A stretch of 64,000 bases of DNA from Saccharothrix sp. HUAS TT1 (GTDB lineage: Bacteria; Actinomycetota; Actinomycetes; Mycobacteriales; Pseudonocardiaceae), in the NCBI RefSeq assembly GCF_040744945.1, contig NZ_CP160453.1, positions 7,998,001 through 8,062,000 of the forward strand, given 5' to 3'. Below are positions 1-15,021 of this stretch, piece by piece; within the stretch, counting starts at the first letter, position 1, and each line of letters opens with the position of its first letter. The notes below the pieces were generated by a model. It ran no database searches. It saw nothing but the letters and a program-made list of their open reading frames with translations, and was not told the DNA's origin. Both the position numbers and the translations under genes were made by a program.

Positions 1-1241
1 GACAACACCTGCCGCAGGAACGCCCACGCGTACTCCACCGCACCTCGCACCGCGCGAAAACCGTTGCCCCGGCGCAGGAAGGGCAACCACGCGCCGATTG
101 CCGCCAGCCCGCTGCGCACGGTCGCCCCGTAAGCGCGGCGACGTAGCAGCAGGTTCGCCCGGTGCAGTTCGAACAGCACGGCGCCGCGGCGGTAACCCCC
201 GGCACGGGAACCGCTCACGGCGTTGTCCAGCAGGGCAAGGGCTTCGTCGTACCGACCTCGCCGAACCGCGAGGCGGGACGTGGCCGCGTCGAGGATCGCG
301 TGCGCGGCGGTGTTGTGGCGCAGGCGCGCGAACACCCGGCGGGCCTCGGTGAAGTGGTGTTCGCTCTCGTCCCAGGCGCCGCCCAGCAGGAGGATTTCGC
401 CGATCGCGATGTGCTGGAAGCCGCTCTTGCGCTCGTGCTCGGCGTGCGTCATGTACCGGTGGTCGAGCGCGCGGACCAGGCTCACCAGGGCCTCTTCCTC
501 CCGTCCCAGCATGTGCAGGACGCGACCGCTGTAGTGGTGCGCCCTGGCCAATGCCCGCATGGCCCGGTGGCTGTCCGACGGCACGTCGGCCGTGAGCGCC
601 GCCTGGTAGTGGGTCAACGCCGTGCGCAGGCCGCCCTGCGTGTAGTGGAGGTTCCCAAGGCACACGCGCACCTCGGGCAGCCGGTGTGCGCACGTCGGAT
701 CGGTCGAGCACACGGTCAGGCACCGGTCCAGCAACCGGGCTGCCGACTGGTACTCGGTCAGGTCGATCGCGAACTGGGCGGTGGCGAGGTCGACTTCCAC
801 GCGGTCCAGCGCCGTGCGGCACGCCCGGAGGGCCAGCGCCAGCTCCCGCCTGCGGGCTTCGTCGCCCTCCGTCACCCGGGCGTAGTAAGACGCCTTGGCC
901 AGGTGCACCGGCCAGCCCGCGAGCCCCGCCGCCGCGAACACCGAGGCCGCCGCCTGCACCACGTCCGGGAAGTCCGCCACCCCGGGCCGGTCGCCCTGCT
1001 CGATCGCGCTGACCGCCAGCTCCACGAACCGGTCCAGGAACCGCGACAGCACGACGCCGTCGACCGGGATCCGGTACCGGCTGACGTTGTCCAGGTCCTT
1101 GACCATCGTCCGCAGGACGTCCTCCGGCGAGTCGTCGTCCGCGCCGCGGGCGGACCGCTCGAACGACCGGTGCACCACGTCGTGCCACGTGGCGCGGTTG
1201 GCGCCACCGTAGCCGCGGAAGGTCCGCTCAGCCGAGGTCAT
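1..1241 (-). CDS. TPR-repeat protein, partial (runs off the left edge)
   Basis: An open frame runs on the minus strand from ATG at 1241 to base 1 without a stop, so at least 413 residues are visible and the C-terminus is missing. The ATG overlaps the stop of the upstream STAND gene by 14 nt, so the two are almost certainly translated together. The product is soluble, without signal peptide or membrane segment. Alpha-helical 34-residue-like units rich in A, L, Y and G recur through the visible part (for example around VCLGNLHYTQGGL and ARAHHYSGRVLHMLG), typical of tetratricopeptide repeats. TPR stretches usually form the sensor or partner-binding arm of STAND ATPases; here that arm seems to be a separate polypeptide. 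That role is inference; open frame, overlap and TPR character are visible. Confidence 0.7.
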   Translation of the reverse strand, partial: MTSAERTFRGYGGANRATWHDVVHRSFERSARGADDDSPEDVLRTMVKDLDNVSRYRIPVDGVVLSRFLDRFVELAVSAIEQGDRPGVADFPDVVQAAASVFAAAGLAGWPVHLAKASYYARVTEGDEARRRELALALRACRTALDRVEVDLATAQFAIDLTEYQSAARLLDRCLTVCSTDPTCAHRLPEVRVCLGNLHYTQGGLRTALTHYQAALTADVPSDSHRAMRALARAHHYSGRVLHMLGREEEALVSLVRALDHRYMTHAEHERKSGFQHIAIGEILLLGGAWDESEHHFTEARRVFARLRHNTAAHAILDAATSRLAVRRGRYDEALALLDNAVSGSRAGGYRRGAVLFELHRANLLLRRRAYGATVRSGLAAIGAWLPFLRRGNGFRAVRGAVEYAWAFLRQVL

Positions 1242-2892
1242 CGGCCTGCGGGCGGGTGTACTCGTAGAGCAGGCTGTGGATCGAGTACCGGGAGTTGAGC
1301 CGGGACGCCTGCACCAGGCCCAGGTCGAAAGCGGCCTGCAACGTGGTGTCGAACGCGTCCGACCCCAGCCCGGCGAGCTCCCGCAGCTCCTCGCGGCTGA
1401 TCTCGTCGCCGCGCCGCTTGACGCAGAACGCCGCGATCAGCGCCTGCGCGTTGTCCGGGCTCGCGACCAGCTCCAGCTCCGCGAGCGACCGGTCGAACAG
1501 GTAGTCCTTCACCTGCCGGCCGAGGCGACCGCGGGTGTGCGTCGCCGCGTCGGTCAGCTCCTCGGCGACCCGCCCCAGGGGCAGCCCGGTCGACAGGTAG
1601 CGGCCGACGACGAGCTTGAGCAAGTACGGGTTGCCCTCCGTGATCCCGACGACGGGGGACAGCAACTCTCGGGGCGCCGTCACCAACTGCTCGTCGTCGC
1701 GCCCGATGTGCCGCACGAGCGCCACGGCGTCATCCTCGGACAGCCCTCGGATCATGTGCTGCTGCACCAGCCCGAACGGCCCCTCGACCCGGCTGCGGCT
1801 GGCGACCACGAGCTTGTTCGGCCGGGCCAGGCCGAAGCCGTCGAGCCGGTCGACCAGAACGGTGGCCTGGCGCGGCGTCTCCACGTTGTCCACGACCGTG
1901 ACCACGCGGCCGTTCGCCGTCGCCAGGCTGTCGCGGAAACCCTCGCCCCACTGACGCGGATCGGGACCGAGCACGATGCCGAGCTGGTCGGCGAGGTCGA
2001 CCACGGTCTCCATCCACCAGCTCCGCGCGTCGGGCGAGAAGTCGGCTTCCGGCCCGTCGCCGCGCACGGTCGTCCACAGCACCCGGTCCACCAGCCCGTC
2101 GCGGTGCGCCCGGTCGACCGCCTCGAACGTGACCGTCGTCTTGCCGATCCCGCCCGTGCCGCGCACGGCGAGGATCCACGAGCCCGTCGGATTGGCCAGC
2201 GCCTCGCGCACCCGCGCGGTGGTCGTTTCGACGCCGAAGAGCCCGTCGCGTTCGTGGTTGACCGCCGCTCGGTCGCGCCAGCCGCCGTCCGGGGCGCTCA
2301 CCTCGGGTTGGCCGGGCACGTGGAGCCACCCCACGACCCGGCTCTCCTTCACCTGCGCCTCGACCCGTTGGTAGCTCTCGGGGTCGATGTCCGAGTGCCC
2401 CTGGCTCACCACGTCCTCGTGGAACCGCTCGGAGACGATCACAGCGACCGGCGCCGCCTGCGGGGCGGCGGCCAGGGCGCCACGCAGCGGGGTCGAGTCC
2501 AGCAGGCGCGCCAGCAGGACCATCGGCCTGCCCGTGTAGCCGAAGTCGTCCAGCACCACGTCGGCGTCGTGCACCGCCACCCGCACGCGCATCCGCTCCG
2601 ACTCCGGCGCACGCTCGTTGTGCGCGCGCAGGGCATCGACCAGCACACCCAGGACCGGGTGCAGCAACAACCGCTTGGGATACCGGGCGGGGACCGCCAC
2701 AACCAGCCCGTCACCACGATCGTGGTCGTGGCACGAGCCCCAGTCGATACCCGCCTGGGCGAACGCCCCGGCCAAGCACTCCCGGAGCGCCCGCCGCATC
2801 GCGACCGACGCCGCGTTGTGCCGATGAGGGTCAGCGGACCGCTCGATGTCCACCGCGAACAACGCGCGGTGCTCGGGTTCGAGCAAGACCAT
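1228..2892 (-). CDS. STAND NB-ARC ATPase with degenerate nucleotide-cyclase-like N-terminal domain
   Basis: A 554-residue soluble protein with two recognisable parts. Residues about 8-195 resemble a class III nucleotide cyclase fold: Asp15 in the first strand (LFAVDIE), an RGDGLVV motif at 59-65 where the second metal Asp normally sits, and YTGRPMVLLARL at 119-130 in place of the YTV-GDTVNLAARL region, with the transition-state Asn replaced. It may therefore be catalytically dead and act as a sensor. Residues about 220-520 are an NB-ARC/STAND ATPase with Walker A RGTGGIGKTT (Lys251), a Walker B-like VVTVVDNVE and a winged-helix-like C-terminal part. The TPR gene begins inside its stop region. 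Actinobacterial cyclase-STAND proteins are known in architecture but mostly uncharacterised; signalling or defence are both possible. Confidence 0.72.
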   Translation of the reverse strand: MVLLEPEHRALFAVDIERSADPHRHNAASVAMRRALRECLAGAFAQAGIDWGSCHDHDRGDGLVVAVPARYPKRLLLHPVLGVLVDALRAHNERAPESERMRVRVAVHDADVVLDDFGYTGRPMVLLARLLDSTPLRGALAAAPQAAPVAVIVSERFHEDVVSQGHSDIDPESYQRVEAQVKESRVVGWLHVPGQPEVSAPDGGWRDRAAVNHERDGLFGVETTTARVREALANPTGSWILAVRGTGGIGKTTVTFEAVDRAHRDGLVDRVLWTTVRGDGPEADFSPDARSWWMETVVDLADQLGIVLGPDPRQWGEGFRDSLATANGRVVTVVDNVETPRQATVLVDRLDGFGLARPNKLVVASRSRVEGPFGLVQQHMIRGLSEDDAVALVRHIGRDDEQLVTAPRELLSPVVGITEGNPYLLKLVVGRYLSTGLPLGRVAEELTDAATHTRGRLGRQVKDYLFDRSLAELELVASPDNAQALIAAFCVKRRGDEISREELRELAGLGSDAFDTTLQAAFDLGLVQASRLNSRYSIHSLLYEYTRPQADDLG

Positions 2893-3475: not shown

Positions 3476-4513
3476 TCACAGCCGCCTGGCCGACCGCCAC
3501 GAAGTCGAGTAGAAGCCGCCGTCGTCCAAGAGCGAGGTGCCGCCCACGTCGCCCAGCGTGGGCCCGTTGATGCGCTCCCTGCTGGAGATGAAGCGGTGGT
3601 GGCCGCCGTCGTCGAGGCCGAGGTAGATGCCGACGTGGTCCAGGGTGTCCGGGTCGTCCTCGACCTCGAAGAACACCAGGTCGCCCGGCTGGAGCCGGCT
3701 GTAGTCGGTGGCGCGGCGGCGTTCGTTGGCGACGAGCTGCACGCCGGGGCCGAACTCCGAGATGGCGTAGGCGCGCCGGGGCAGGCCCGGTCCCGGGGCG
3801 TTGACGCCCAGCAGCGGCATGCCGAGGCGGTAGCCGAACACCAGGCGCACGTAGCCCGAGCAGTCCACGGCGCCGTAGCGGCTGCGCTCGGGCTGCGCGC
3901 TGGTGCCGTTGACGAAGTCCCAGGGCAGACCCAGGTAGTCGTAGAAGTCCGACTGCTCCTGCCGGCCCGCGCCGGAGGACTTGACCGGGCCGAACGAGGC
4001 GTCCCCCCGGAAGCGCACACCGTTGGCGTCGGTCTCGTCCGGCATGTCGATCAGGTACTCGGTGGCGACGGCGAGCACGTCGGGACCGGTGTCACCGCGT
4101 GCTCGCGCGAACCAGTCGGTGAACCAGCCCTCGACCTCGGCGCCGACCCGCCACGGCTGCGGCAGCAACCGCACCCACGAGGAGGTGGTGACGGTCGCGG
4201 TGGTCGCCTTGGGCTCGCTGAAGGACCGGCGCGGGCCGACGAGCTGGGCCGTGCGCGCACCGTCGGTGAACACCGCGACGACCACTCCGCCCGCCTTGTC
4301 GCGCACGACGGTGCGGGCGGGCGCGTCGAGCCGTTCGTAGACCAGCTGATCGGCCTGCGGGCTCACCGATCCCGGCTCGACGGCCCGGTCGCCGCCCGAC
4401 CCGCCGGTGGGGACGTCCGGCCACCGGACGACCAGCGCGACCGCGAGAGCGGCGACCACCAGCGCCGCCACCCCCGCCCGCGGCAGCCACGTGAGTCGCC
4501 GTTCCGCCTTCAT
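3476..4513 (-). CDS. membrane-anchored NlpC/P60 cysteine peptidase, candidate gamma-PGA or peptidoglycan hydrolase
   Basis: A 345-residue protein starting at ATG 4513 (an in-frame extension to 4579 would overlap pgsC and is rejected). Residues 13-31 form one hydrophobic segment after a basic N-terminus: a signal anchor. The C-terminal half is an NlpC/P60 domain: catalytic Cys218 in VDCSGYVRLVFG, His293 in LDHVGIYLG and a third polar residue at HH305-306, with the typical LQPGDLVFFE strand between them. The gene lies 19 bp downstream of pgsC as the last gene of a receptor-pgsB-pgsC operon. In Bacillus, the PGA depolymerase PgdS is also an NlpC/P60 enzyme, so cleavage of gamma-glutamyl bonds in the polymer made by the neighbouring enzymes is a reasonable inference. 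Ordinary peptidoglycan hydrolysis remains possible. Confidence 0.8.
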   Translation of the reverse strand: MKAERRLTWLPRAGVAALVVAALAVALVVRWPDVPTGGSGGDRAVEPGSVSPQADQLVYERLDAPARTVVRDKAGGVVVAVFTDGARTAQLVGPRRSFSEPKATTATVTTSSWVRLLPQPWRVGAEVEGWFTDWFARARGDTGPDVLAVATEYLIDMPDETDANGVRFRGDASFGPVKSSGAGRQEQSDFYDYLGLPWDFVNGTSAQPERSRYGAVDCSGYVRLVFGYRLGMPLLGVNAPGPGLPRRAYAISEFGPGVQLVANERRRATDYSRLQPGDLVFFEVEDDPDTLDHVGIYLGLDDGGHHRFISSRERINGPTLGDVGGTSLLDDGGFYSTSWRSARRL

Positions 4514-4532
4514 CCCTCTCGCACCAACCGCT

Positions 4533-5018
4533 TCAGACCGTGGGCACCAGCCCGATGAGCACGCCGCTCGCCAGTACACCGTATCCGGCCGCGCTGACGG
4601 TACCCGTCGCTATCGCGGTGACCAGCGGTGGTTGGCGGACGAGCTGGTAGGCGATGAGACCGGGCACCACGAACCCCAGCGTCTGGTGCGCGAACAGCAG
4701 CGGGTAGTCGCTCTGGATCAGCATGAACAGCGTTGTCTGCAGCAGCACGCCGGTGAGCACGACGGCGGCGAAGAGCCGCTTGCCGTAGAGGATGACCACG
4801 CGCTGCAACAACTTCACCGCGCCGAACGTGACACCGCTCATGACCACCACGAGCAGCGCGCGCCGGTAGTCCTCCACGAGGGTCAGGGCCAGCCAGCCCG
4901 GCGTGATCATGCCGCCGGGCGAGAGGTTGGTGGTGAGGTAGCACGCCAGGGAGAACACGAGGCCGATGGCCAGGCCGAGGGTGGCGACCTCCGGCAGGAG
5001 GAGGGATCCGTTGGTCAC
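4533..5018 (-). CDS. pgsC: poly-gamma-glutamate synthase membrane subunit PgsC/CapC
   Basis: 161 residues, almost entirely hydrophobic, with about five predicted membrane segments, the normal size and layout of PgsC/CapC. It begins at a GTG at 5018 that overlaps the pgsB stop in a GTGA arrangement, so it is translated by coupling to pgsB. Recognisable features are the N-terminal LPEVATLGLAIGLVFSL segment, the SPGGMITPGWLAL stretch and the C-terminal GVLASGVLIGL segment. In Bacillus, PgsC forms the membrane-embedded part of the synthase with PgsB and is needed for polymer elongation and export. Neighbour identity (PgsB core on one side) makes the assignment secure at family level. Which amino acid is polymerised cannot be told from the sequence. 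Confidence 0.88.
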   Translation of the reverse strand: MTNGSLLLPEVATLGLAIGLVFSLACYLTTNLSPGGMITPGWLALTLVEDYRRALLVVVMSGVTFGAVKLLQRVVILYGKRLFAAVVLTGVLLQTTLFMLIQSDYPLLFAHQTLGFVVPGLIAYQLVRQPPLVTAIATGTVSAAGYGVLASGVLIGLVPTV

Positions 5019-6901
5019 GACTGCTTCCGGGGTCTGGGAGTGGTGCGGTGGTCGGGGTGCGGTGACGCGTCGCGGTCGGGGGTCTCGTGTCCCGGGCTGT
5101 CGAAGAGGTCCCCCCGCGCCGCGCCGTCGGCCTGCGCCCGGTGCGCCGGGCGGGGCGTCACGCCGCCGGGGTGTTCGGCCCGGAGCCCGGTCCCGGGGTC
5201 GTAGCGCTGCCGGACCGGGTCCGGGTGGGCGCGGTCGGGCGCCGGACGTCGCGGGTCCTGCGCCCGGTGGGGGTCCCCGACGGGCAGCCGACCTCGGGAG
5301 GGCGGAGCCACCGGGTTGACGAACCGCGTCTCCGCCGACGCGTCGCGGGACGTCTCCGCCGACGCGTCGCGGGACGTCTCCGCCGACCGCCAGGACCCGG
5401 CAGGGTGCCGCCGGTGCTCGTGCGGGCGGGGGTGGACCGGCAACCGCTCACCCGGTGCGCGCGGTGGCTCGTGGCGGGCGTCCGGCAGCGGCGAGGGGAA
5501 CCGGCCGTCGTCCGTCCCGCGCGGCGGGAGGGGACGCGGCCGCCCCCCGGCGTCCGGTCCTGGTGCGGCGCCCCGGGGTGGGGTGGGTCGCGGGGTGCGG
5601 CCGGAGGGGACGTCCCCGGCGGGTGCGGGCCGGGCCGGGCGCGCGGGCGGCTCGACGCGCGCACCCGGTTCGATCCGCGCGGCCTTCCCCACCCGCGCGT
5701 CCGCGGGGGCGGCCTGCTCCGCCGGCGGCGGTTCCTCCAGGTGCTCGACGGCTTCCAGGAACATCTCGCCCTGGCCGTGGATGTTGCCGATGGCCACGAG
5801 CGACGCGGTCGACTCGACCCCGGCCAGGACGGCGTCGAGGATTTCCCGACCGCTGCGCGCGGCGCCGAGGTCGGTCACCCGGTCGCGCCACCGCTCGTCC
5901 ACCGCGGACAGGGCGCTGCGGGTCGGTTCCCCGATGAGCACCACCCGGTCGGGGTCGATCCGCGCCACCAGGGCGCCCATCTGCTGGTTGCGCTCCACGC
6001 GGTCCGGTCGGCAGTTGATGACCACGTGCAGGGGGCGGCCGATGGACCCCTGCTCCAGCAGCCGTTCGATGTTCATCAGGGTGGACTCGGGGTCGTTGGC
6101 CGCGAAGACGTTGGCCAGCTTGATCCGCTTGTCGCCCGCGATCCGGGTGTGCACCGACAGCACGCCCGGGTCCGGCGGCGCGGACCACATGCCCGCCAGC
6201 GCCGAACGCCGGTTCACGCCCAGCAGGTCGGCCACCTTGAGCGCGATGGCGACGTTCTCCTTGAACGTGATCCAGGTGAAGCCCGCCATGTCGTCGTCGG
6301 TGACCGACTCGGGGTCGACCGCGATCAGCTCGCAGTCCCGCTTGGCCGCCTCCGCCTCCAGGATGTGCAGCCGGTCCACCTCGGCCGTCACGCACACCCC
6401 GCCCACCGGCATGGACCGGCTCAACGACCGGGCCACGTCGTCGAGGGTGGGGCCCATCTCGGCGAGGTGGTCCTCGCGGACGTTGCACAGCACGCCGATG
6501 GTGGAGCGGATCAGCTTGCTCTGGTTGATCTCCTGCAGGTCGGGCATGACCGCCATGCACTCGATCACCAGCGCGTCGGACCGGTAAGCGGCGGCACGGC
6601 GCACGATGCCGATCTGCTCGACGACGTTCGCGATGCCCCACTTGCGGTAGACCGGTTCCTCGCTGCCGTCGGGGTGGATGAACCGGGCGGCCGTGCCGGT
6701 GGTCTTGGCCGTGGTGACCAGTCCCCCGCCGCGCAGGGCCCCCGCGCACAGCCGGGTGATGGAGCTCTTGCCGCGGATGCCGTTGACCAGGACCCGGTGC
6801 TCGATGCTGCCGAGCTGGCCGAGGTGCCTGCGCTGCTCGACCACGCCCGCGGCGAACGTGCCGGCCGTGAGCAGGACGAAGACGACGTAGAGGTAGGTCA
6901 C
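5015..6901 (-). CDS. pgsB: poly-gamma-glutamate synthase PgsB/CapB with long Pro/Arg-rich C-terminal tail
   Basis: 628 residues from GTG 6901, which overlaps the stop of the upstream receptor gene (GTGA). Residues 1-20 are a membrane segment. Residues 41-49 read GIRGKSSIT, the nucleotide-binding loop of the Mur-ligase-like amide ligase family to which PgsB/CapB belongs. The conserved core (about 388 residues, ending near the IGNIHGQGEMFLE motif) matches the usual 390-400 residues of PgsB. A tail of about 240 residues rich in Pro, Arg, Gly and Asp follows, predicted disordered and including an eight-residue tandem repeat (SAETSRDA) encoded by a 24-bp DNA repeat. PgsB ligates glutamate through the gamma-carboxyl using ATP at the inner membrane face. 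The tail is absent from Bacillus PgsB and its role is unknown. Confidence 0.88.
   Translation of the reverse strand: MTYLYVVFVLLTAGTFAAGVVEQRRHLGQLGSIEHRVLVNGIRGKSSITRLCAGALRGGGLVTTAKTTGTAARFIHPDGSEEPVYRKWGIANVVEQIGIVRRAAAYRSDALVIECMAVMPDLQEINQSKLIRSTIGVLCNVREDHLAEMGPTLDDVARSLSRSMPVGGVCVTAEVDRLHILEAEAAKRDCELIAVDPESVTDDDMAGFTWITFKENVAIALKVADLLGVNRRSALAGMWSAPPDPGVLSVHTRIAGDKRIKLANVFAANDPESTLMNIERLLEQGSIGRPLHVVINCRPDRVERNQQMGALVARIDPDRVVLIGEPTRSALSAVDERWRDRVTDLGAARSGREILDAVLAGVESTASLVAIGNIHGQGEMFLEAVEHLEEPPPAEQAAPADARVGKAARIEPGARVEPPARPARPAPAGDVPSGRTPRPTPPRGAAPGPDAGGRPRPLPPRGTDDGRFPSPLPDARHEPPRAPGERLPVHPRPHEHRRHPAGSWRSAETSRDASAETSRDASAETRFVNPVAPPSRGRLPVGDPHRAQDPRRPAPDRAHPDPVRQRYDPGTGLRAEHPGGVTPRPAHRAQADGAARGDLFDSPGHETPDRDASPHPDHRTTPRPRKQS
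5328..5387. repeat. 24-bp tandem repeat, 2.5 copies, inside the pgsB tail
   Basis: A 24-base unit beginning GTCTCCGCCGACGCG occurs at 5328-5351 and 5352-5375, with half a further copy to 5387. The copies are identical, encode SAETSRDA in the minus-strand frame and keep the pgsB reading frame, so copy number could vary without breaking the gene. Confidence 0.9.
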
Positions 6902-9132
6902 GCCGAGCCCTTCCCGACTCGGGCGCGGGACGCGCGGGCGGCGGCGCGGCGGACCGGCGGGCGGGACTGCGGTGCGTGCGCCGCGGGCTTGTCCACCGGT
7001 TTGAGGAACTGGGTGGGGTCGGTGGCCGCACCCCGTGGCCGGCGCACCTCGCCGAGTCGGTCGGGGCCCTGGGTCACCGCCTGTCGGCAGATCTCCAGGC
7101 ACGAGGCGATGGTGCCGACCTCGTCGTGCCGCTGGGGGTAGATGACCGACTTGAGGTCGCCGCGGACCAGGGCGTCCGCGGCGCGGGAGACCCGGCGCAG
7201 CGGGCCGAGCACGGAGAACAGCAACCAGCCGTAGCCGAACAGCGCGACCAGCGCGACGATCAGCGCGACCAGTTGCGCGTAGCGGCGGACGTCGTTGACG
7301 GGCAGGGCGAGTTCGGCGCCGGGCTTCTCCGAGACCACCGTCCAGCCGAGCCGGCCGACCTCGCCGCCGACCACGGCCGCGGCGGAGACGATGCCGGGGC
7401 CGTCCTCGCCGGGTTGGACGTCGCCGACGGGGTCGCCGCGCTGGGCGCGGGTGGCGCCGTCGCGCAGTGCCGGGTCGGTGACCTGCTCGAAGGCGATGAA
7501 GCCGTCCGTCGCGCTGATGGTGCGGAAGTCCCCGTCGACCAGGCGCGCGTGGCCGGGCACGTGGCCCAGCAGGGAGCCGAGGTGCTCCAGGTCGAACTCC
7601 CCGACCACGGTGGAGCCCCCTGCCACGGGGACCTCGGCGAAGATCACCGGGACGCGGCCCTCCTGGTTCTGCTGGCGCAGGCCGGCCACCGCCGCCGGGG
7701 GTTCGCCGATGCGCAGCGGGGGGCGGCCGACGGGCTCACCGGCCCGGCCGGAGCGGTCCACCGCGTAGAGGCTGCGGTAACGGGTCTGGTCGACCATCAT
7801 CCGCTCCAGCGCGGACCGCAGGGCGTCGGGCGACCCCGCGCCGGCGGCGACGGCGGAGAGGTCGGCCAGGCCGTCGTTCATGCTGCGGCGCAGGGCGTCC
7901 GTCGCCCTGGCGGTCTGGGCGCGGACCCCGGCGACGACACCGGCGGGGATGTCGACCTCGGCCGGGCGGAAGGCCACGAGCACCCCGCCCGACCAGGCGA
8001 AGACCGAGAGCGCGAGGACGCAGCAGGTGGCGCGCGCGGTGACGCGGCGGCCGGTGACCGGCTCGACGTCGCCGCTCCCGCCGGTCAGGCGGTCCAGGCA
8101 CAGCCGGGCCGCGGCGACGACGCGGGCCACCTCGGCCGTCCCGGTGGGGCGGACGGTGGTGCCCAGGTCGCCGGAGGCGAGGGAGAGCAGGTCGGCGCGG
8201 GCGGTGAGGACGGGACCGGTGACGACGCGGCGCACGACCACGAACCCGACGACGGCGAGCAGCGCCAGCAGCGCGGCGGGAACGATGCCCGAGGTGCCGG
8301 CCGCGCCGCTGTGCAGCGGACCCGCGGCGACCGCGACCACGGCGAGGTCGAGGCCGTCGGGGCTGCCCGACGGCACGACCCGCACGTGGGCGTAGGTGCG
8401 CTGGACGCGGTCGTCCGGCATCCCGAGCAGCACACCGGGGCCGGCGGCGGCGGCGCGGGCGGCCTCGGCGAGGAAGCGCTCGACGTCGGGGGCGCGGTCG
8501 CGGGCCAGCGGCCCCGTGGCGGCGACGACCTGGCCGGACAGGGTGGTGAGCAGGTAGGACTGGCCGAGCACGTCATCCGCGGCCGGCTCGGGCAGTCGCA
8601 GGGCCGTCGTCGCGGTGAGCAGTCGGCCGTCGGGCAGCCTGGCGGTGATGAGCAGCACCGGTTCGCCGCCGGCGGTGACCGCCGAGGTGACCGCGGCGTC
8701 GTCGACGGCCGTCGGGATCACCTGGACCGGGACCTGCTCACCGCGTGCGGCGAGCAGGGAACGACCGGGTTCGGCGAGCACCGCGGCTCCGCGCCACTTG
8801 CGGTTGCGCACCAGGTCGTCCAGCAGCCGGTCCGGTTCGCCGGTGGCGCCGGTGGCGGCGTTCCGCAACTCGCTCGAACCCTGGTTCGCCGTCGCGCCGA
8901 TGGAACGGGCCACTCCGAGCGCGATCTCCTGCTGGGACTCGCGGAAGGCGGCGGGCACCTCTTCGTCGCCGTCGCCGCTCAGCAGCAGGCCCGTGGTCCC
9001 GGCCAGGGCCAGGAGCAGGACGAGCAGTGCCGTGGGCAGTAGGCGCACCGTGGCCGGAAAGGACGTTTCCGGTAATTGGTCCTGCAAGCGTCCCAGCCGG
9101 ACGTCACGGTCTGTAACCGTTTTGTGGCGCAC
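6898..9132 (-). CDS. receptor-like membrane protein with two extracytoplasmic domains and HAMP linkers, no output domain
   Basis: 744 residues from GTG 9132, preceded by a GGAGA ribosome site 7 nt away. Membrane segments lie near residues 27-50, 280-302, 370-392 and 620-645, enclosing two extracytoplasmic regions of about 230 residues that look Cache-like. After the second segment comes a HAMP-type helix pair (TGPVLTARADLLSLASGDLG), and after the last another (LGPLRRVSRAADALVRGDLK), so the protein seems to be a duplicated Cache-HAMP unit. The C-terminus is a short basic, proline-rich tail; no histidine kinase, methyl-accepting, cyclase or phosphatase domain follows. Its stop overlaps the pgsB start (GTGA), so receptor and polymer synthase are made together. 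A direct regulatory or scaffolding role for the synthase is inferred from this coupling. Confidence 0.75.
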   Translation of the reverse strand: MRHKTVTDRDVRLGRLQDQLPETSFPATVRLLPTALLVLLLALAGTTGLLLSGDGDEEVPAAFRESQQEIALGVARSIGATANQGSSELRNAATGATGEPDRLLDDLVRNRKWRGAAVLAEPGRSLLAARGEQVPVQVIPTAVDDAAVTSAVTAGGEPVLLITARLPDGRLLTATTALRLPEPAADDVLGQSYLLTTLSGQVVAATGPLARDRAPDVERFLAEAARAAAAGPGVLLGMPDDRVQRTYAHVRVVPSGSPDGLDLAVVAVAAGPLHSGAAGTSGIVPAALLALLAVVGFVVVRRVVTGPVLTARADLLSLASGDLGTTVRPTGTAEVARVVAAARLCLDRLTGGSGDVEPVTGRRVTARATCCVLALSVFAWSGGVLVAFRPAEVDIPAGVVAGVRAQTARATDALRRSMNDGLADLSAVAAGAGSPDALRSALERMMVDQTRYRSLYAVDRSGRAGEPVGRPPLRIGEPPAAVAGLRQQNQEGRVPVIFAEVPVAGGSTVVGEFDLEHLGSLLGHVPGHARLVDGDFRTISATDGFIAFEQVTDPALRDGATRAQRGDPVGDVQPGEDGPGIVSAAAVVGGEVGRLGWTVVSEKPGAELALPVNDVRRYAQLVALIVALVALFGYGWLLFSVLGPLRRVSRAADALVRGDLKSVIYPQRHDEVGTIASCLEICRQAVTQGPDRLGEVRRPRGAATDPTQFLKPVDKPAAHAPQSRPPVRRAAARASRARVGKGSA

Positions 9133-9289: not shown

Positions 9290-10195
9290 GTGATCTATAT
9301 TCGTTTACGGCGTACTTTTGTGTTGTTTCTCGCCGTGATCAGCATCTCCTTCGTCGGGTGTTACGGAAAGGGCCCTTCCGACGATCCGCCACCGCCCTCC
9401 GACCCGGCGGTGGCCCTCGCGGAACGGGTCGCCGCTTTCGTGGCGGCGCTGCGCGAGGACGCGCCCTACCGACCACCCACCGCCGAACAGCGCCGGGCGT
9501 TCACCGAGGCGTTCGCCGCGCTGGGCCCCACCCCGGCGACGGGGGACGACGACCTGCGCTCCCTCGGCTTCGCCGTGCGGCGCACGGTGGACGAGGAGAC
9601 CGGCCGCCCCTACGCGCTCGCGGCCGCGGAGGCCGGCACCGAGCACAGCTGGGGCCTGTACGTGGTGGACCTGTCCCGACCGGTGCGGGTCGCGGTGCAG
9701 GTCCCGCACCCCGCCAACGACCTGCGCACCGCCGAGATCGGGCTCGACCTGTTCCGCCGGGTTCCCGGCGCCGTGCTCTCCGTGGCGGGCACGCACCGCC
9801 GCGTGGCCGCCGGCGCGGGTGACGCCGCCCACCGCACGGACTCGCTGTTCCACGCGGCGGCCGAACGGCACTCGCGCGACCGCGTGCCACAGGTGCAGCT
9901 GCACGGCTTCGACGACGACAGCCTCCCGTCCGCGGACCTGGTGCTCTCCCCCGGCGCGGCGCGGGAGGACCCGTCGATCACCCGGGTCGCCGACGACCTC
10001 GAAGGGCTGCTGCGCGTGTGCCGGGCGTGGGCGCGCGACTGCGGCGATCTGGAGGGCAGGCGGAATCGGCAGGGAGCCGTCGCGGCGGAGCACGGCGCCT
10101 TCTTCGCGCACGTGGAGCTCAACCGCACCACCCGGGTTTCCCCCGAGGAGTGGGAACCCGTCGTCCGCGCGCTGGAAAAAGCACTGGGCGGCTGA
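9290..10195 (+). CDS. putative lipoprotein, possible metal-dependent PGA hydrolase-like protein
   Basis: 301 residues from GTG 9290. A basic N-terminus and hydrophobic stretch end in the lipobox-like ISISFVGC (Cys24), so it is probably lipid-anchored outside the membrane. The mature part contains HPANDLRTAEIG, AGTHRR, DAAHRTDSLFH and VQLHGFD. This spacing (H, acidic residue, T-x-E-I, later an x-x-HG strand) recalls phage-type gamma-PGA hydrolases of the PghP family, which are zinc enzymes with a carboxypeptidase-like fold. That resemblance is from memory, the spacing differs by one residue, and it should be taken as a hint. The gene is divergent from the receptor-pgsBC operon and 98 bp upstream of pgsA on the same strand, so a role in polymer handling fits. 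Confidence 0.6.
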   Translation: MIYIRLRRTFVLFLAVISISFVGCYGKGPSDDPPPPSDPAVALAERVAAFVAALREDAPYRPPTAEQRRAFTEAFAALGPTPATGDDDLRSLGFAVRRTVDEETGRPYALAAAEAGTEHSWGLYVVDLSRPVRVAVQVPHPANDLRTAEIGLDLFRRVPGAVLSVAGTHRRVAAGAGDAAHRTDSLFHAAAERHSRDRVPQVQLHGFDDDSLPSADLVLSPGAAREDPSITRVADDLEGLLRVCRAWARDCGDLEGRRNRQGAVAAEHGAFFAHVELNRTTRVSPEEWEPVVRALEKALGG

Positions 10196-10293: not shown

Positions 10294-12759
<2,466 letters not shown>

Positions 12760-13089: not shown

Positions 13090-13695
13090 ATGTCCGACCT
13101 CAAGATCGCCGTCATCTACTACTCCGCCACAGGCAGCGTGCACGCGATGGCCCGAGCCGCGGCCGAGGCGGCCGAGGGGGAGGTGCGGCTGCGGAAGGTG
13201 CGCGAGCTGGCGCCGGACGAGGCCATCGCCAGCAACGAGGGCTGGGCTGCCCACGTCAAGCAGACCCAGGACGTCCCCGAGGCGACCTTGGACGACCTGG
13301 AGTGGGCCGACCTGCTCATCTTCGGCACGCCCACCCGTTACGGCCTGCCGACGGCGCAGCTGAAGCAGTTCATCGACTCCACCGGCCCGCTCTGGGCGCA
13401 GGGCAAGCTGGTCGACAAGGTGGCGACCTCGTTCACCTCGGCGGGCACCGCGCACGGCGGCCAGGAAACCACCATCACCGCGCTGAACAACACCTTCTAC
13501 CACTGGGGCTGCGTCATCGTGCCACCCGGCTACGCCGACCCCATCCAGTTCCAGGCCGGTAATCCCTACGGCACGAGCCACGTCTCCAACAACGGCCAGA
13601 CCCCACCCGGCCAGGTGGAACTGGACGCGGTGACCTTCCAAACCCGTCGAGCCGTGCGCATCGCCCGCGCCCTGAAGAAGGGCCTGACCGCCTAG
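13090..13695 (+). CDS. wrbA: NAD(P)H:quinone oxidoreductase, WrbA family
   Basis: 201 residues starting at ATG 13090 behind AGGAGAG. It has the flavodoxin-like fold of WrbA: the phosphate loop YYSATGSVHAMA near the N-terminus, the FMN-contacting GTPTRYGLPTAQLKQF, TSAGTAHGGQETT and the C-terminal PYGTSHVS. WrbA proteins bind FMN, form tetramers and reduce quinones by two electrons with NAD(P)H, protecting against redox stress. Length is typical (about 200). It stands alone, between the PGA locus and the insertion element that begins the mobile island, and nothing ties it to either. The family assignment is firm; the physiological substrate is not visible. Confidence 0.93.
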   Translation: MSDLKIAVIYYSATGSVHAMARAAAEAAEGEVRLRKVRELAPDEAIASNEGWAAHVKQTQDVPEATLDDLEWADLLIFGTPTRYGLPTAQLKQFIDSTGPLWAQGKLVDKVATSFTSAGTAHGGQETTITALNNTFYHWGCVIVPPGYADPIQFQAGNPYGTSHVSNNGQTPPGQVELDAVTFQTRRAVRIARALKKGLTA

Positions 13696-13857
13696 CTCCG
13701 GCAGGAGCATCGCACCCAGGAGCCACCCCGCGGACGGCCCTCGGCAACATCGTGCCGCACTTGTCCCCTGCATGTGCAGCACCTGTCGAGGGTCTGCTGC
13801 ACGGATTGGTGACATCTGAGTTGGCTTGCCGTGATGGCGAGCTGGGAGGATGTCGCT

Positions 13858-14166
13858 GTGCCCAAGCCCTACCCCCGGGAGTTCCGCGACGATGTCGTGC
13901 GGGTCGCCCGTGACCGTGAGCCCGGCGTGACGGTCGAGCAGGTCGCGAAGGACTTCGGGGTCTATCCGATGACCTTGTTCAAGTGGCTGCGCCAAGCCGA
14001 CACCGACGAGGGCGTCAAACCCGGTGTGAGCAGGAACGACTCGGCCGAGCTGCGCGAGGCGCGCAAGCGGATCAAGCTGCTCGAGCAGGAGAACGAGGTC
14101 CTGCGGCGGGCGACCGCGTACTTGTCGCAGGCGAACCTGCCGGGAAAAGGCTCTACCCGCTCGTGA
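13858..14166 (+). CDS. IS3-family transposase orfA (helix-turn-helix subunit)
   Basis: 102 residues from GTG 13858, chosen because GGGAGGA lies 8-9 bases upstream; the frame is also open from 13831. The first 55 residues are a transposase_8-type helix-turn-helix (REFRDDVVRVARD, VEQVAKDFGV, TLFKWLRQAD). The rest is a leucine-zipper-like helix (ARKRIKLLEQENEVLRRA), which in IS3 elements mediates multimerisation. In intact relatives a -1 ribosomal frameshift near the end of orfA yields the OrfAB fusion; the frame relation here (orfB start in -1) is consistent with that. orfA itself is intact. Confidence 0.85.
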   Translation: MPKPYPREFRDDVVRVARDREPGVTVEQVAKDFGVYPMTLFKWLRQADTDEGVKPGVSRNDSAELREARKRIKLLEQENEVLRRATAYLSQANLPGKGSTRS

Positions 14167-15021
14167 GCGAGTTCGCCGCGGACGGGATTCCCGTCGCGGT
14201 GACGTGCCGGGTCCTGAACATCGCTCGACAGCCGTACTACCGTGGCGTGCCCGACCGGTCGCCGATGCCGAACTGGTCAAGGCGTATCGGGCGAACGCGT
14301 TGTTCGACGCCCACCGCGACGATCCGGAGTTCGGATACCGGTTCCTGGCCGACAAGGCGCGCGACGTCGGCCTGTCGATGGCGGATCGGACCGCGTGGCG
14401 GATCTGCTCGTCCATGGGCTGGTGGAGCGCGTTCGGCAGGAACGCGGCCGCAACGGCGCGAAGGCCGGTCCGCCGGTCCACGACGACCTGGTCCACCGCG
14501 ATTTCACCGCCACCGCACCGAACCGGCTGTGGCTGGCCGACATCACCGAACACCGCACCACCGAAGGAAAGCTGTATCTGTGCGCGGTCAAGGACGTCTG
14601 CTCCAACCGGATCGTGGGCTACTCCATCGCCTCCCGGATGAAGTCCCGCCTCGCCGTCACCGCGCTCACCAACGCCATCGCCCGACGCGGTGACGTCGCC
14701 GGCTGCGTGGTGCACACCGACCGCGGATCGCAATTTCGATCAAGGAAATTCGTCCGTGTCCTCGCTCGCCACGGGCTGGCAGGCTCGATGGGCAGGGTGG
14801 GCGCGGCGGGTGACAACGCCGCCATGGAGAGCTTCTTCGCGTTGCTGCAGAACAACGTTCTCGACCGGCGCGCCTGGCACACCCGCGACGAGCTCCGGAC
14901 CGCGATCGTCACCTGGATCGAACACACCTACCACCGCCGCCGACGCCAAGCCCGCCTCGGCCGGTTGACCCCCATCGAATACGAAGCAATCATGACCACG
15001 TCAGCCAGCCAGGCTGCGTGA
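14157..15021 (+). pseudogene. IS3-family transposase orfB with two frameshifts
   Basis: The DDE integrase-core subunit is spread over three frames. It starts in the -1 frame after orfA (YPLVSEFAADGIPVAVTCRV), moves to a second frame near 14240 (ELVKAYRANALFDAH ... GWWSAFG) and to a third near 14440 (GRNGAKAGPPVHDDLVHRDF onward). Each move fits loss of a single base. The last frame keeps all three catalytic acids: Asp in WLADITEH, Asp in VHTDRGSQF and Glu in AAMESFFALLQ. With two frameshifts it is unlikely to be functional. Sequencing error cannot be excluded, although the neighbouring transposase also carries a one-base loss. Confidence 0.85.

What the first reader, a model, noticed from the sequence alone, without database searches (positions are those of the whole stretch)
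3476..9132. PGA synthase genes translationally coupled to a receptor-like protein that has no output domain
A duplicated Cache-HAMP membrane protein without kinase, cyclase or methyl-accepting domain overlaps pgsB by GTGA, pgsB overlaps pgsC by GTGA, and an NlpC/P60 hydrolase follows. I know of no described case in which a capsule-type amide ligase is coupled to such a receptor; the synthase itself may be the output, gated by a signal sensed outside the membrane.
Basis: partly seen in the sequence, partly recalled or inferred. Interest (0 to 1): 0.7.

Follow-up and report, generated by a model that had tools for sequence, protein, structure and literature searches.

The report
Capsule-polymer synthase wired to a receptor
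In many soil actinobacteria the genes for a polyglutamate-type polymer synthase sit directly behind, often overlapping, a gene for a chemoreceptor-like membrane protein in which no signalling output part could be found, so the synthase itself is likely the output that the receptor would switch from outside the cell.

Summary
A 744-residue receptor-like protein (REC, 6898-9132 -) overlaps pgsB by GTGA, pgsB overlaps pgsC by GTGA, and an NlpC/P60 gene follows after 19 nt. REC is an internal duplication of a dCache-HAMP unit; no output domain was found and its tail is modelled as disordered. The divergent gene at 9290-10195 is a predicted gamma-PGA hydrolase; a CapA/PgsA gene follows it.

The pairing is not unique to this genome. 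All 41 REC loci from named genomes carry pgsB directly downstream. In 57 of 58 distinct REC loci the pgsB start lies -3 to +16 nt from the REC stop. Of 37 pgsB loci found without reference to REC, 21 have REC; REC-partnered PgsB falls on one side of one tree branch (57 rows against 16, SH-aLRT 91). Three genomes of two lineages carry a single-unit REC; where the upstream side is visible (2 of 2), CheY-like receivers without DNA-binding domains overlap its start.

Best reading: REC is a regulatory subunit and the synthase is its output. Contact, ligand and sign of control are untested. Searches of the held papers found no description; the nearest precedent is the archaeal receptor Af1503. New variant of a known kind.

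The parts
6898..9132 (-). REC: output-less receptor-like membrane protein, two dCache-HAMP units, 744 aa
   Evidence: 56-sequence alignment A3
8293..8979 (-). REC first ectodomain (residues 52-280), predicted dCache-like
   Evidence: AlphaFold2 model; match of residues 28-328 to the single-unit model, E 1.3e-8. Domain borders are read from the model
8083..8217 (-). REC first HAMP (residues 306-350)
   Evidence: Profile of A3, positions 275-355, matches Tsr at E 1.3e-4 and positions 300-354 the Af1503 HAMP (chimera) at 2.7e-3; not recognised by Pfam
7303..7959 (-). REC second ectodomain (residues 392-610), predicted dCache-like
7063..7212 (-). REC second HAMP (residues 641-690), the most conserved part of REC
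   Evidence: PF00672 37.9 bits; 3.09 bits mean information, 19 of 50 positions above 3.5
7003..7062 (-). REC conserved short tail (residues 691-710, RLGEVRRPRGAAT-like), then a disordered end
   Evidence: 2.70 bits; pLDDT about 61 falling to 39-48. Absent from the single-unit RECs
6898..6901 (-). GTGA overlap of the REC stop and the pgsB start; a GGGAAGGG stretch (6908-6915), Shine-Dalgarno-like by eye, lies inside the REC end
   Evidence: spacing conserved in 57 of 58 distinct loci
5015..6901 (-). pgsB, PGA synthase amide ligase; core residues 1-390, then a proline- and arginine-rich extension (5018-5734)
   Evidence: TIGR04012 368.5 bits; core length
4533..5018 (-). pgsC, membrane partner of PgsB
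   Evidence: PF14102 119.6 bits; TIGR04011 76 bits, under its cut-off
3476..4513 (-). NlpC/P60 family hydrolase with an N-terminal membrane anchor by eye; possible PgdS-like PGA hydrolase (inferred)
   Evidence: PF00877 35.9 bits; present in 40 of 41 REC loci
9290..10195 (+). divergent gene for a predicted secreted or membrane-anchored gamma-PGA hydrolase (LIPO; M14/PghP-like fold)
10294..12759 (+). CapA/PgsA-type protein (PGA_cap)
   Evidence: PF09587 189.7 bits

Best explanation
REC is a membrane protein in which no output domain was found, encoded within -3 to +16 nt of pgsB in 57 of 58 distinct loci, and it is predicted to be the sensing and regulatory subunit of a gamma-polyglutamate synthase that would itself serve as the receptor's output. 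Shown: gene order, near-invariant stop/start spacing, one-branch co-occurrence with a PgsB clade, internal duplication, absence of a recognisable output domain, conserved second HAMP. Predicted: dCache ectodomains outside, HAMPs inside; LIPO as a PGA hydrolase. Inferred: because pgsB is translated straight after REC, REC and PgsB are made together at the membrane. A signal outside (a small ligand in dCache2, perhaps glutamate or gamma-glutamyl fragments freed by the LIPO and NlpC hydrolases) would shift the second HAMP, which would contact PgsB and PgsC and set their activity. In single-unit relatives, phosphorylated CheY-like receivers would add a cytosolic input.
For: 41 of 41 REC loci from named genomes have pgsB then pgsC directly downstream, 40 of 41 the NlpC gene, 36 of 41 LIPO. 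Stop-to-start spacing -3 to +16 nt in 57 of 58 distinct loci. PgsB-first, without reference to REC: REC next to 7 of 22 places in the phylum draw (21 of 396 genomes with a match over the cut-off), 7 of 8 in the order draw (200 genomes), 14 of 15 in the class draw (394 genomes); 21 of 37 distinct places in all, 19 of 21 inside the window's class. PgsB tree: 57 REC rows against 16 others need one change (SH-aLRT 91; shuffled mean 14.8, 0 of 500 as low). REC-first in 396 genomes with a single-unit model: the strong matches (181 bits or more at the best hit of each place) lie at 7 places, all beside pgsB; the next match elsewhere has 55.5 bits over the C-terminal HAMP part (only 4 candidates per genome scored). 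Both paralogous cassettes of Kibdelosporangium keep their own REC type. Receivers overlap the single-unit REC gene in 2 of 2 loci with visible upstream and a histidine kinase lies within the stretch in both. dCache fold, second HAMP most conserved, LIPO as PGA hydrolase by fold.
Against: No contact between REC and PgsB or PgsC was tested. Distance-matrix correlation is not specific: REC-PgsB 0.80, REC-LIPO 0.91, REC-NLPC 0.89. One REC locus (L071) has a broken pgsB 56 nt away. G133 (L122), sister to the REC clade, makes do without REC. Receivers are absent within 1.5 kb of all 50 two-unit RECs tested, so that supporting context is confined to two lineages. The conserved tail after HAMP2 is missing in single-unit RECs. 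The 41 REC-first loci were found with patterns from the HAMP2 region, so RECs that lack them were not sampled. Polymer production by any of these strains was not looked for.
Confidence: 0.58

Rival explanations
1. REC is a structural or export subunit of the synthase, not a sensor: its dCache domains would hold or guide the growing chain outside, like PgsA or PgsE, and HAMP would only hold the dimer together.
For: REC is more constant in the cassette than CapA/PgsA: CapA lies near pgsB in 15 of 16 loci without REC but in 17 of 54 REC rows (15 of 50 distinct) and 6 of the 8 class-draw loci.
Against: CapA exists elsewhere in 24 of 25 REC genomes searched, so PgsA is not generally replaced. The fold is that of small-molecule sensors, HAMP2 is the most conserved part, and receivers are coupled to the single-unit form.
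Confidence: 0.2
2. REC signals to some other cytosolic partner (a kinase, a receiver or a division protein) and is coupled to pgsB only so that both are made in fixed ratio; the synthase is not the target.
For: Receivers and kinases lie next to the single-unit REC. Af1503-like receptors are coupled to a small separate protein and sit near transporters (PMC4834066, passages seen).
Against: No conserved partner other than PgsB, PgsC, NlpC and LIPO accompanies REC across 41 loci by the queries used; a partner encoded elsewhere was not searched for. Strong REC matches were found only beside pgsB.
Confidence: 0.17
3. The pairing is hitch-hiking: the cassette moves as a block (it is also on Streptomyces plasmids) and REC has no functional link to the synthase.
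For: The cassette lies on plasmids in 6 Streptomyces records (the 4 distinct ones examined have pgsB after REC).
Against: Spacing is kept to a few bases in 57 of 58 distinct loci over several families, and REC was not found apart from pgsB in the genomes searched.
Confidence: 0.03

Closest known systems
PgsBCA / CapBCA gamma-PGA synthase with PgdS (Bacillus)
   Same: PgsB by TIGR04012 over cut-off, PgsC by PF14102, CapA/PgsA by PF09587, a hydrolase of the NlpC/P60 family downstream.
   Different: A receptor gene replaces the promoter-proximal position and pgsA is not third in the operon. Regulation described in the review PMC5751247 (passages seen) is transcriptional: DegS-DegU, ComP-ComA, SwrA.
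Af1503-type archaeal receptors with Af1502 (STAC)
   Same: Receptor whose sole cytosolic part is HAMP, no recognisable effector, translationally coupled to the next gene (PMC4834066, passages seen); Af1503 HAMPs are among the nearest solved HAMPs by profile.
   Different: The coupled partner here is a biosynthetic amide ligase, not a small STAC protein. REC has two units with dCache ectodomains; no homology outside HAMP was found by sequence.
dCache chemoreceptors (PctA, PctC, Mlp24, CtaA, TlpC)
   Different: No methyl-accepting signalling domain; REC ends after HAMP.
Phage PghP / YndL gamma-PGA hydrolases
   Different: Sequence identity 11-14%; extra N-terminal part; comparable Z for an N-formylglutamate amidohydrolase and for 2odf, so the substrate is not fixed by the fold.

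Membership tests
gamma-PGA synthase (PgsB/PgsC/PgsA) | PgsB equivalog match over the curated cut-off | tested here: met
   TIGR04012 368.5 against 222.7
gamma-PGA synthase (PgsB/PgsC/PgsA) | PgsC equivalog match over the curated cut-off | tested here: not met
   TIGR04011 76 against 96.45; the Pfam family CapC is met, 119.6 against 27
gamma-PGA synthase (PgsB/PgsC/PgsA) | PgsA/CapA present | tested here: met
   PF09587 at 10294-12759, 189.7 bits; a second CapA elsewhere in the genome
gamma-PGA synthase (PgsB/PgsC/PgsA) | gamma-linked polyglutamate is made | not testable with these tools
   Needs chemistry
dCache-HAMP receptor | dCache ectodomain | tested here: met
dCache-HAMP receptor | HAMP after the last membrane helix | tested here: met
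   PF00672 37.9 against 25
dCache-HAMP receptor | Output domain (MCP signal, HisKA/HATPase, GGDEF, EAL, phosphatase, cyclase) | tested here: not met
   No such match in Pfam or NCBIfam at E up to 1, except HAMP-part matches of such receptors; tail disordered
Af1503-type output-less receptor | HAMP as sole cytosolic module and translational coupling to the next gene | tested here: met
   REC also has HAMP1 between its two units
Af1503-type output-less receptor | Coupled partner is a STAC protein | tested here: not met
   Partner is PgsB
PghP-like gamma-PGA hydrolase (LIPO) | Sequence family match (PF05908 or NCBIfam) | tested here: not met
   No family for the window protein or for its L110 and L170 relatives in Pfam
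PghP-like gamma-PGA hydrolase (LIPO) | Fold and invariant His/Asp/Glu positions | tested here: inconclusive
   Fold match; H140, H169, D178, H181, H205, H274, E276 invariant in 34 sequences; metal sites not superposed

The most novel reading that the evidence does not exclude
A polymer synthase is itself the output domain of a chemoreceptor-like receptor: actinobacteria have built a capsule-type amide ligase into transmembrane signalling, so that extracellular ligand binding gates polymerisation directly, with no kinase, cyclase or second messenger, and in older single-unit lineages with CheY-like receivers acting on the same receptor-synthase complex.
Probability: 0.42. Interest if true: 0.86.

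Novelty: new variant of a known kind. Interest (0 to 1): 0.68.

Why it matters
Control of gamma-PGA synthases is described, in the review seen here, as transcriptional. A receptor subunit would make it allosteric and immediate, and would give output-less HAMP receptors a class of enzymatic partner. It also gives a simple rule (REC present or absent) that splits actinobacterial PgsB into two groups, and a tractable test: the cassette is on a plasmid of the laboratory strain Streptomyces clavuligerus ATCC 27064. The single-unit lineages with receivers make the question of direct phospho-control of a polymer synthase testable.

Tried and rejected
REC as a general replacement of PgsA: rejected, because CapA is found elsewhere in 24 of 25 REC genomes searched; G542, 77% complete, had none.

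Hidden output domain in the REC tail: not found.

REC-PgsB co-variation: distance-matrix correlations on 47 common loci are not specific. Thirty-four PgsB positions differ between the REC group and the rest, but that is expected of any two clades and was not used as evidence.

A second protein search with the profile A1 added nothing to the first (29 hits, all among the 31). Sequence profile of LIPO against solved structures gave only chance-level hits. PgsB alone had no solved relative by sequence at E 0.01.

Large REC/pgsB overlaps of 178 and 114 nt in L048 and L062 were an artefact of reading past the REC stop; true spacing is +5 and +3.

Amino-acid-binding motif of dCache: compared by eye with a motif recalled from memory; the recalled RxWY stretch is not obvious in dCache2. 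Not a test.

Whether the 16 loci without REC have some other receptor upstream was examined only for L122: none in the same direction; a divergent two-component pair lies upstream by eye.

Literature: search listings only. Passages were seen of PMC4834066, PMC10897055, PMC5751247, PMC12502663 and PMC3979752. The three papers holding both PgsB and 'HAMP' hold it as 'hampered' or 'Hampton'. PgsB with 'Cache domain': 0 papers; PgsB with 'chemoreceptor': 2 Bacillus genome papers, listing only. Subscription papers and preprints are not in that library.
Full report
OBSERVATION. On the minus strand the window holds REC (6898-9132), pgsB (5015-6901), pgsC (4533-5018) and an NlpC/P60 gene (3476-4513) in this order. 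REC and pgsB share GTGA at 6898-6901, pgsB and pgsC share GTGA at 5015-5018; the NlpC start lies 19 nt after pgsC. PgsB passes the equivalog model TIGR04012 (368.5 against 222.7), PgsC passes PF14102 (119.6 against 27) but not TIGR04011 (76 against 96.45), NlpC/P60 passes PF00877. On the plus strand follow a divergent 301-aa gene (LIPO, 9290-10195) and a CapA/PgsA gene (10294-12759, PF09587 189.7 bits). The genome has one PgsB and two CapA.

HOW GENERAL. A scan of one genome per species with the REC alignment gave 41 loci, mostly Pseudonocardiaceae, also Micromonosporaceae, Kribbella and one Streptomyces. pgsB and pgsC follow directly in 41 of 41, the NlpC gene in 40, LIPO is in the held stretch in 36. 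The scan used patterns from the HAMP2 region, so it is biased to RECs that hold them. Counting from PgsB instead, three draws with TIGR04012 gave 22 places in 21 of 396 genomes (phylum), 8 in 8 of 200 (order) and 15 in 14 of 394 (class), own genome included in each; 37 distinct places. REC is next to 21 of 37, to 19 of 21 in the window's class (exceptions G133 and G334) and to 2 of 16 outside it. In the phylum and class draws only up to four candidates per genome were scored. Counting from a single-unit REC model in the same 396 genomes, the strong matches lie at 7 places, all beside pgsB; the best match elsewhere is 55.5 bits over the HAMP end (same cap, list cut). On plasmids, 6 Streptomyces records match; three are S. 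clavuligerus. The 4 distinct records examined have pgsB right after REC.

SPACING. In 58 distinct loci (62 rows, 4 of them the same contig twice) the pgsB start lies -3 to +16 nt from the end of the REC stop in 57, -3 to +8 in 56, and exactly -3 (ATGA/GTGA) in 14. The exception, L071 (+56), has a pgsB open for only 214 aa. Such spacing over several families argues for co-translation (inference).

TWO KINDS OF PgsB. A tree of 73 PgsB rows puts the 57 REC-partnered rows on one side of a single branch (SH-aLRT 91, no bootstrap), the 16 others on the other side; one change, shuffled mean 14.8, 0 of 500 as low. Branches of the outside rows are long and the program warned that their joins may be false; the root is not fixed. 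REC rows were partly gathered through REC, which inflates their number but not the partition seen in the PgsB-first places. CapA lies near pgsB in 15 of 16 loci without REC, in 17 of 54 REC rows and in 6 of the 8 class-draw loci; it is elsewhere in 24 of 25 REC genomes searched. Three Kibdelosporangium species carry two cassettes, and each REC type forms its own clade (support 100) as do their PgsB.

THE SINGLE-UNIT LINEAGES. Three genomes of two lineages (G542 and G367 of one genus; G804) have a one-unit REC beside pgsB, and their PgsB form a clade (support 100). In G542 (L110) two CheY-like receivers (Response_reg 93.6 and 62.3 bits) precede REC, the second overlapping it; pgsB, pgsC and a LIPO gene follow. 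In G804 (L170) a receiver (97.2 bits) overlaps REC by GTGA, REC overlaps pgsB by ATGA, and LIPO is divergent. No DNA-binding domain was found in these receivers. A histidine kinase gene lies some kilobases off in both. In G367 the contig begins inside REC, and its REC reading is interrupted; it was left as it is. No receiver lies within 1.5 kb of REC in 50 two-unit loci. So where a second unit was added, receivers are not coupled; whether one took the place of the other is a guess.

MECHANISM. The most likely reading: REC is made together with PgsB, stays with PgsB-PgsC in the membrane, and passes an outside signal through HAMP2 to the ligase. The ligand is unknown; glutamate or gamma-glutamyl pieces freed by the two hydrolases would give a feedback loop (speculation). 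The sign of control is unknown. The distance-matrix comparison did not single out REC-PgsB (0.80; REC-LIPO 0.91), so the case rests on gene order, spacing, co-occurrence and anatomy.

KNOWN OR NEW. Output-less HAMP receptors are known in archaea: Af1503, translationally coupled to Af1502 (PMC4834066, passages). Control of pgsBCA in the review seen is transcriptional (PMC5751247, passages). In the held library no paper describes PgsB with a HAMP or Cache receptor; NCBI calls REC 'HAMP domain-containing protein'. Hence: new variant of a known kind, widespread and, as far as searched, undescribed.

Noticed in passing
window 5018-5734 (-): PgsB carries a proline/arginine-rich extension of about 240 residues after its core; in relatives with REC PgsB ranges from 385 to 732 aa (broken L071 left out), so the extension comes and goes.
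   Followed up: partly
L110 2450-3195 and 8150-10303; L170 4177-7199 and 10304-10900: Stand-alone receivers and GAF/PAS histidine kinases around the single-unit receptor-synthase cassette.
   Followed up: partly
L180-L183 (Streptomyces plasmids): The cassette lies on large Streptomyces plasmids, among them pSCL4 of S. clavuligerus ATCC 27064.
   Followed up: partly
L050, L062: Contigs titled Rhodococcus rhodnii NRRL B-16535 carry both Kibdelosporangium-type cassettes almost unchanged (branch lengths); the assembly may be mislabelled or mixed.
   Followed up: no
L071 11286-11930; L084 1-1123: Two degraded cassettes: pgsB open for only 214 aa in Streptomyces sp. yr375, and an interrupted receptor in a metagenome-assembled genome.
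   Followed up: no
L122 7959-12094: Micromonospora-family genome G133 has pgsB-pgsC-NlpC-CapA without REC and branches next to the REC clade: a possible stage before REC was gained.
   Followed up: partly
window 1228-2892 (-): STAND-type NTPase (NB-ARC 21.8 bits, just under its cut-off) with an N-terminal stretch that by eye resembles a degenerate nucleotide cyclase.
   Followed up: no
window 13090-13695 and 13831-15021 (+): By eye, a WrbA-like flavoprotein and an IS3-like transposase pair beyond the CapA gene.
   Followed up: no
REC residues 345, 678, 682 (window 8098, 7099, 7087 as first bases on -): Cysteines near the end of each HAMP are nearly invariant in REC (C345 in alignment A1, C678 and C682 in A1 and A3); no role known.
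   Followed up: no
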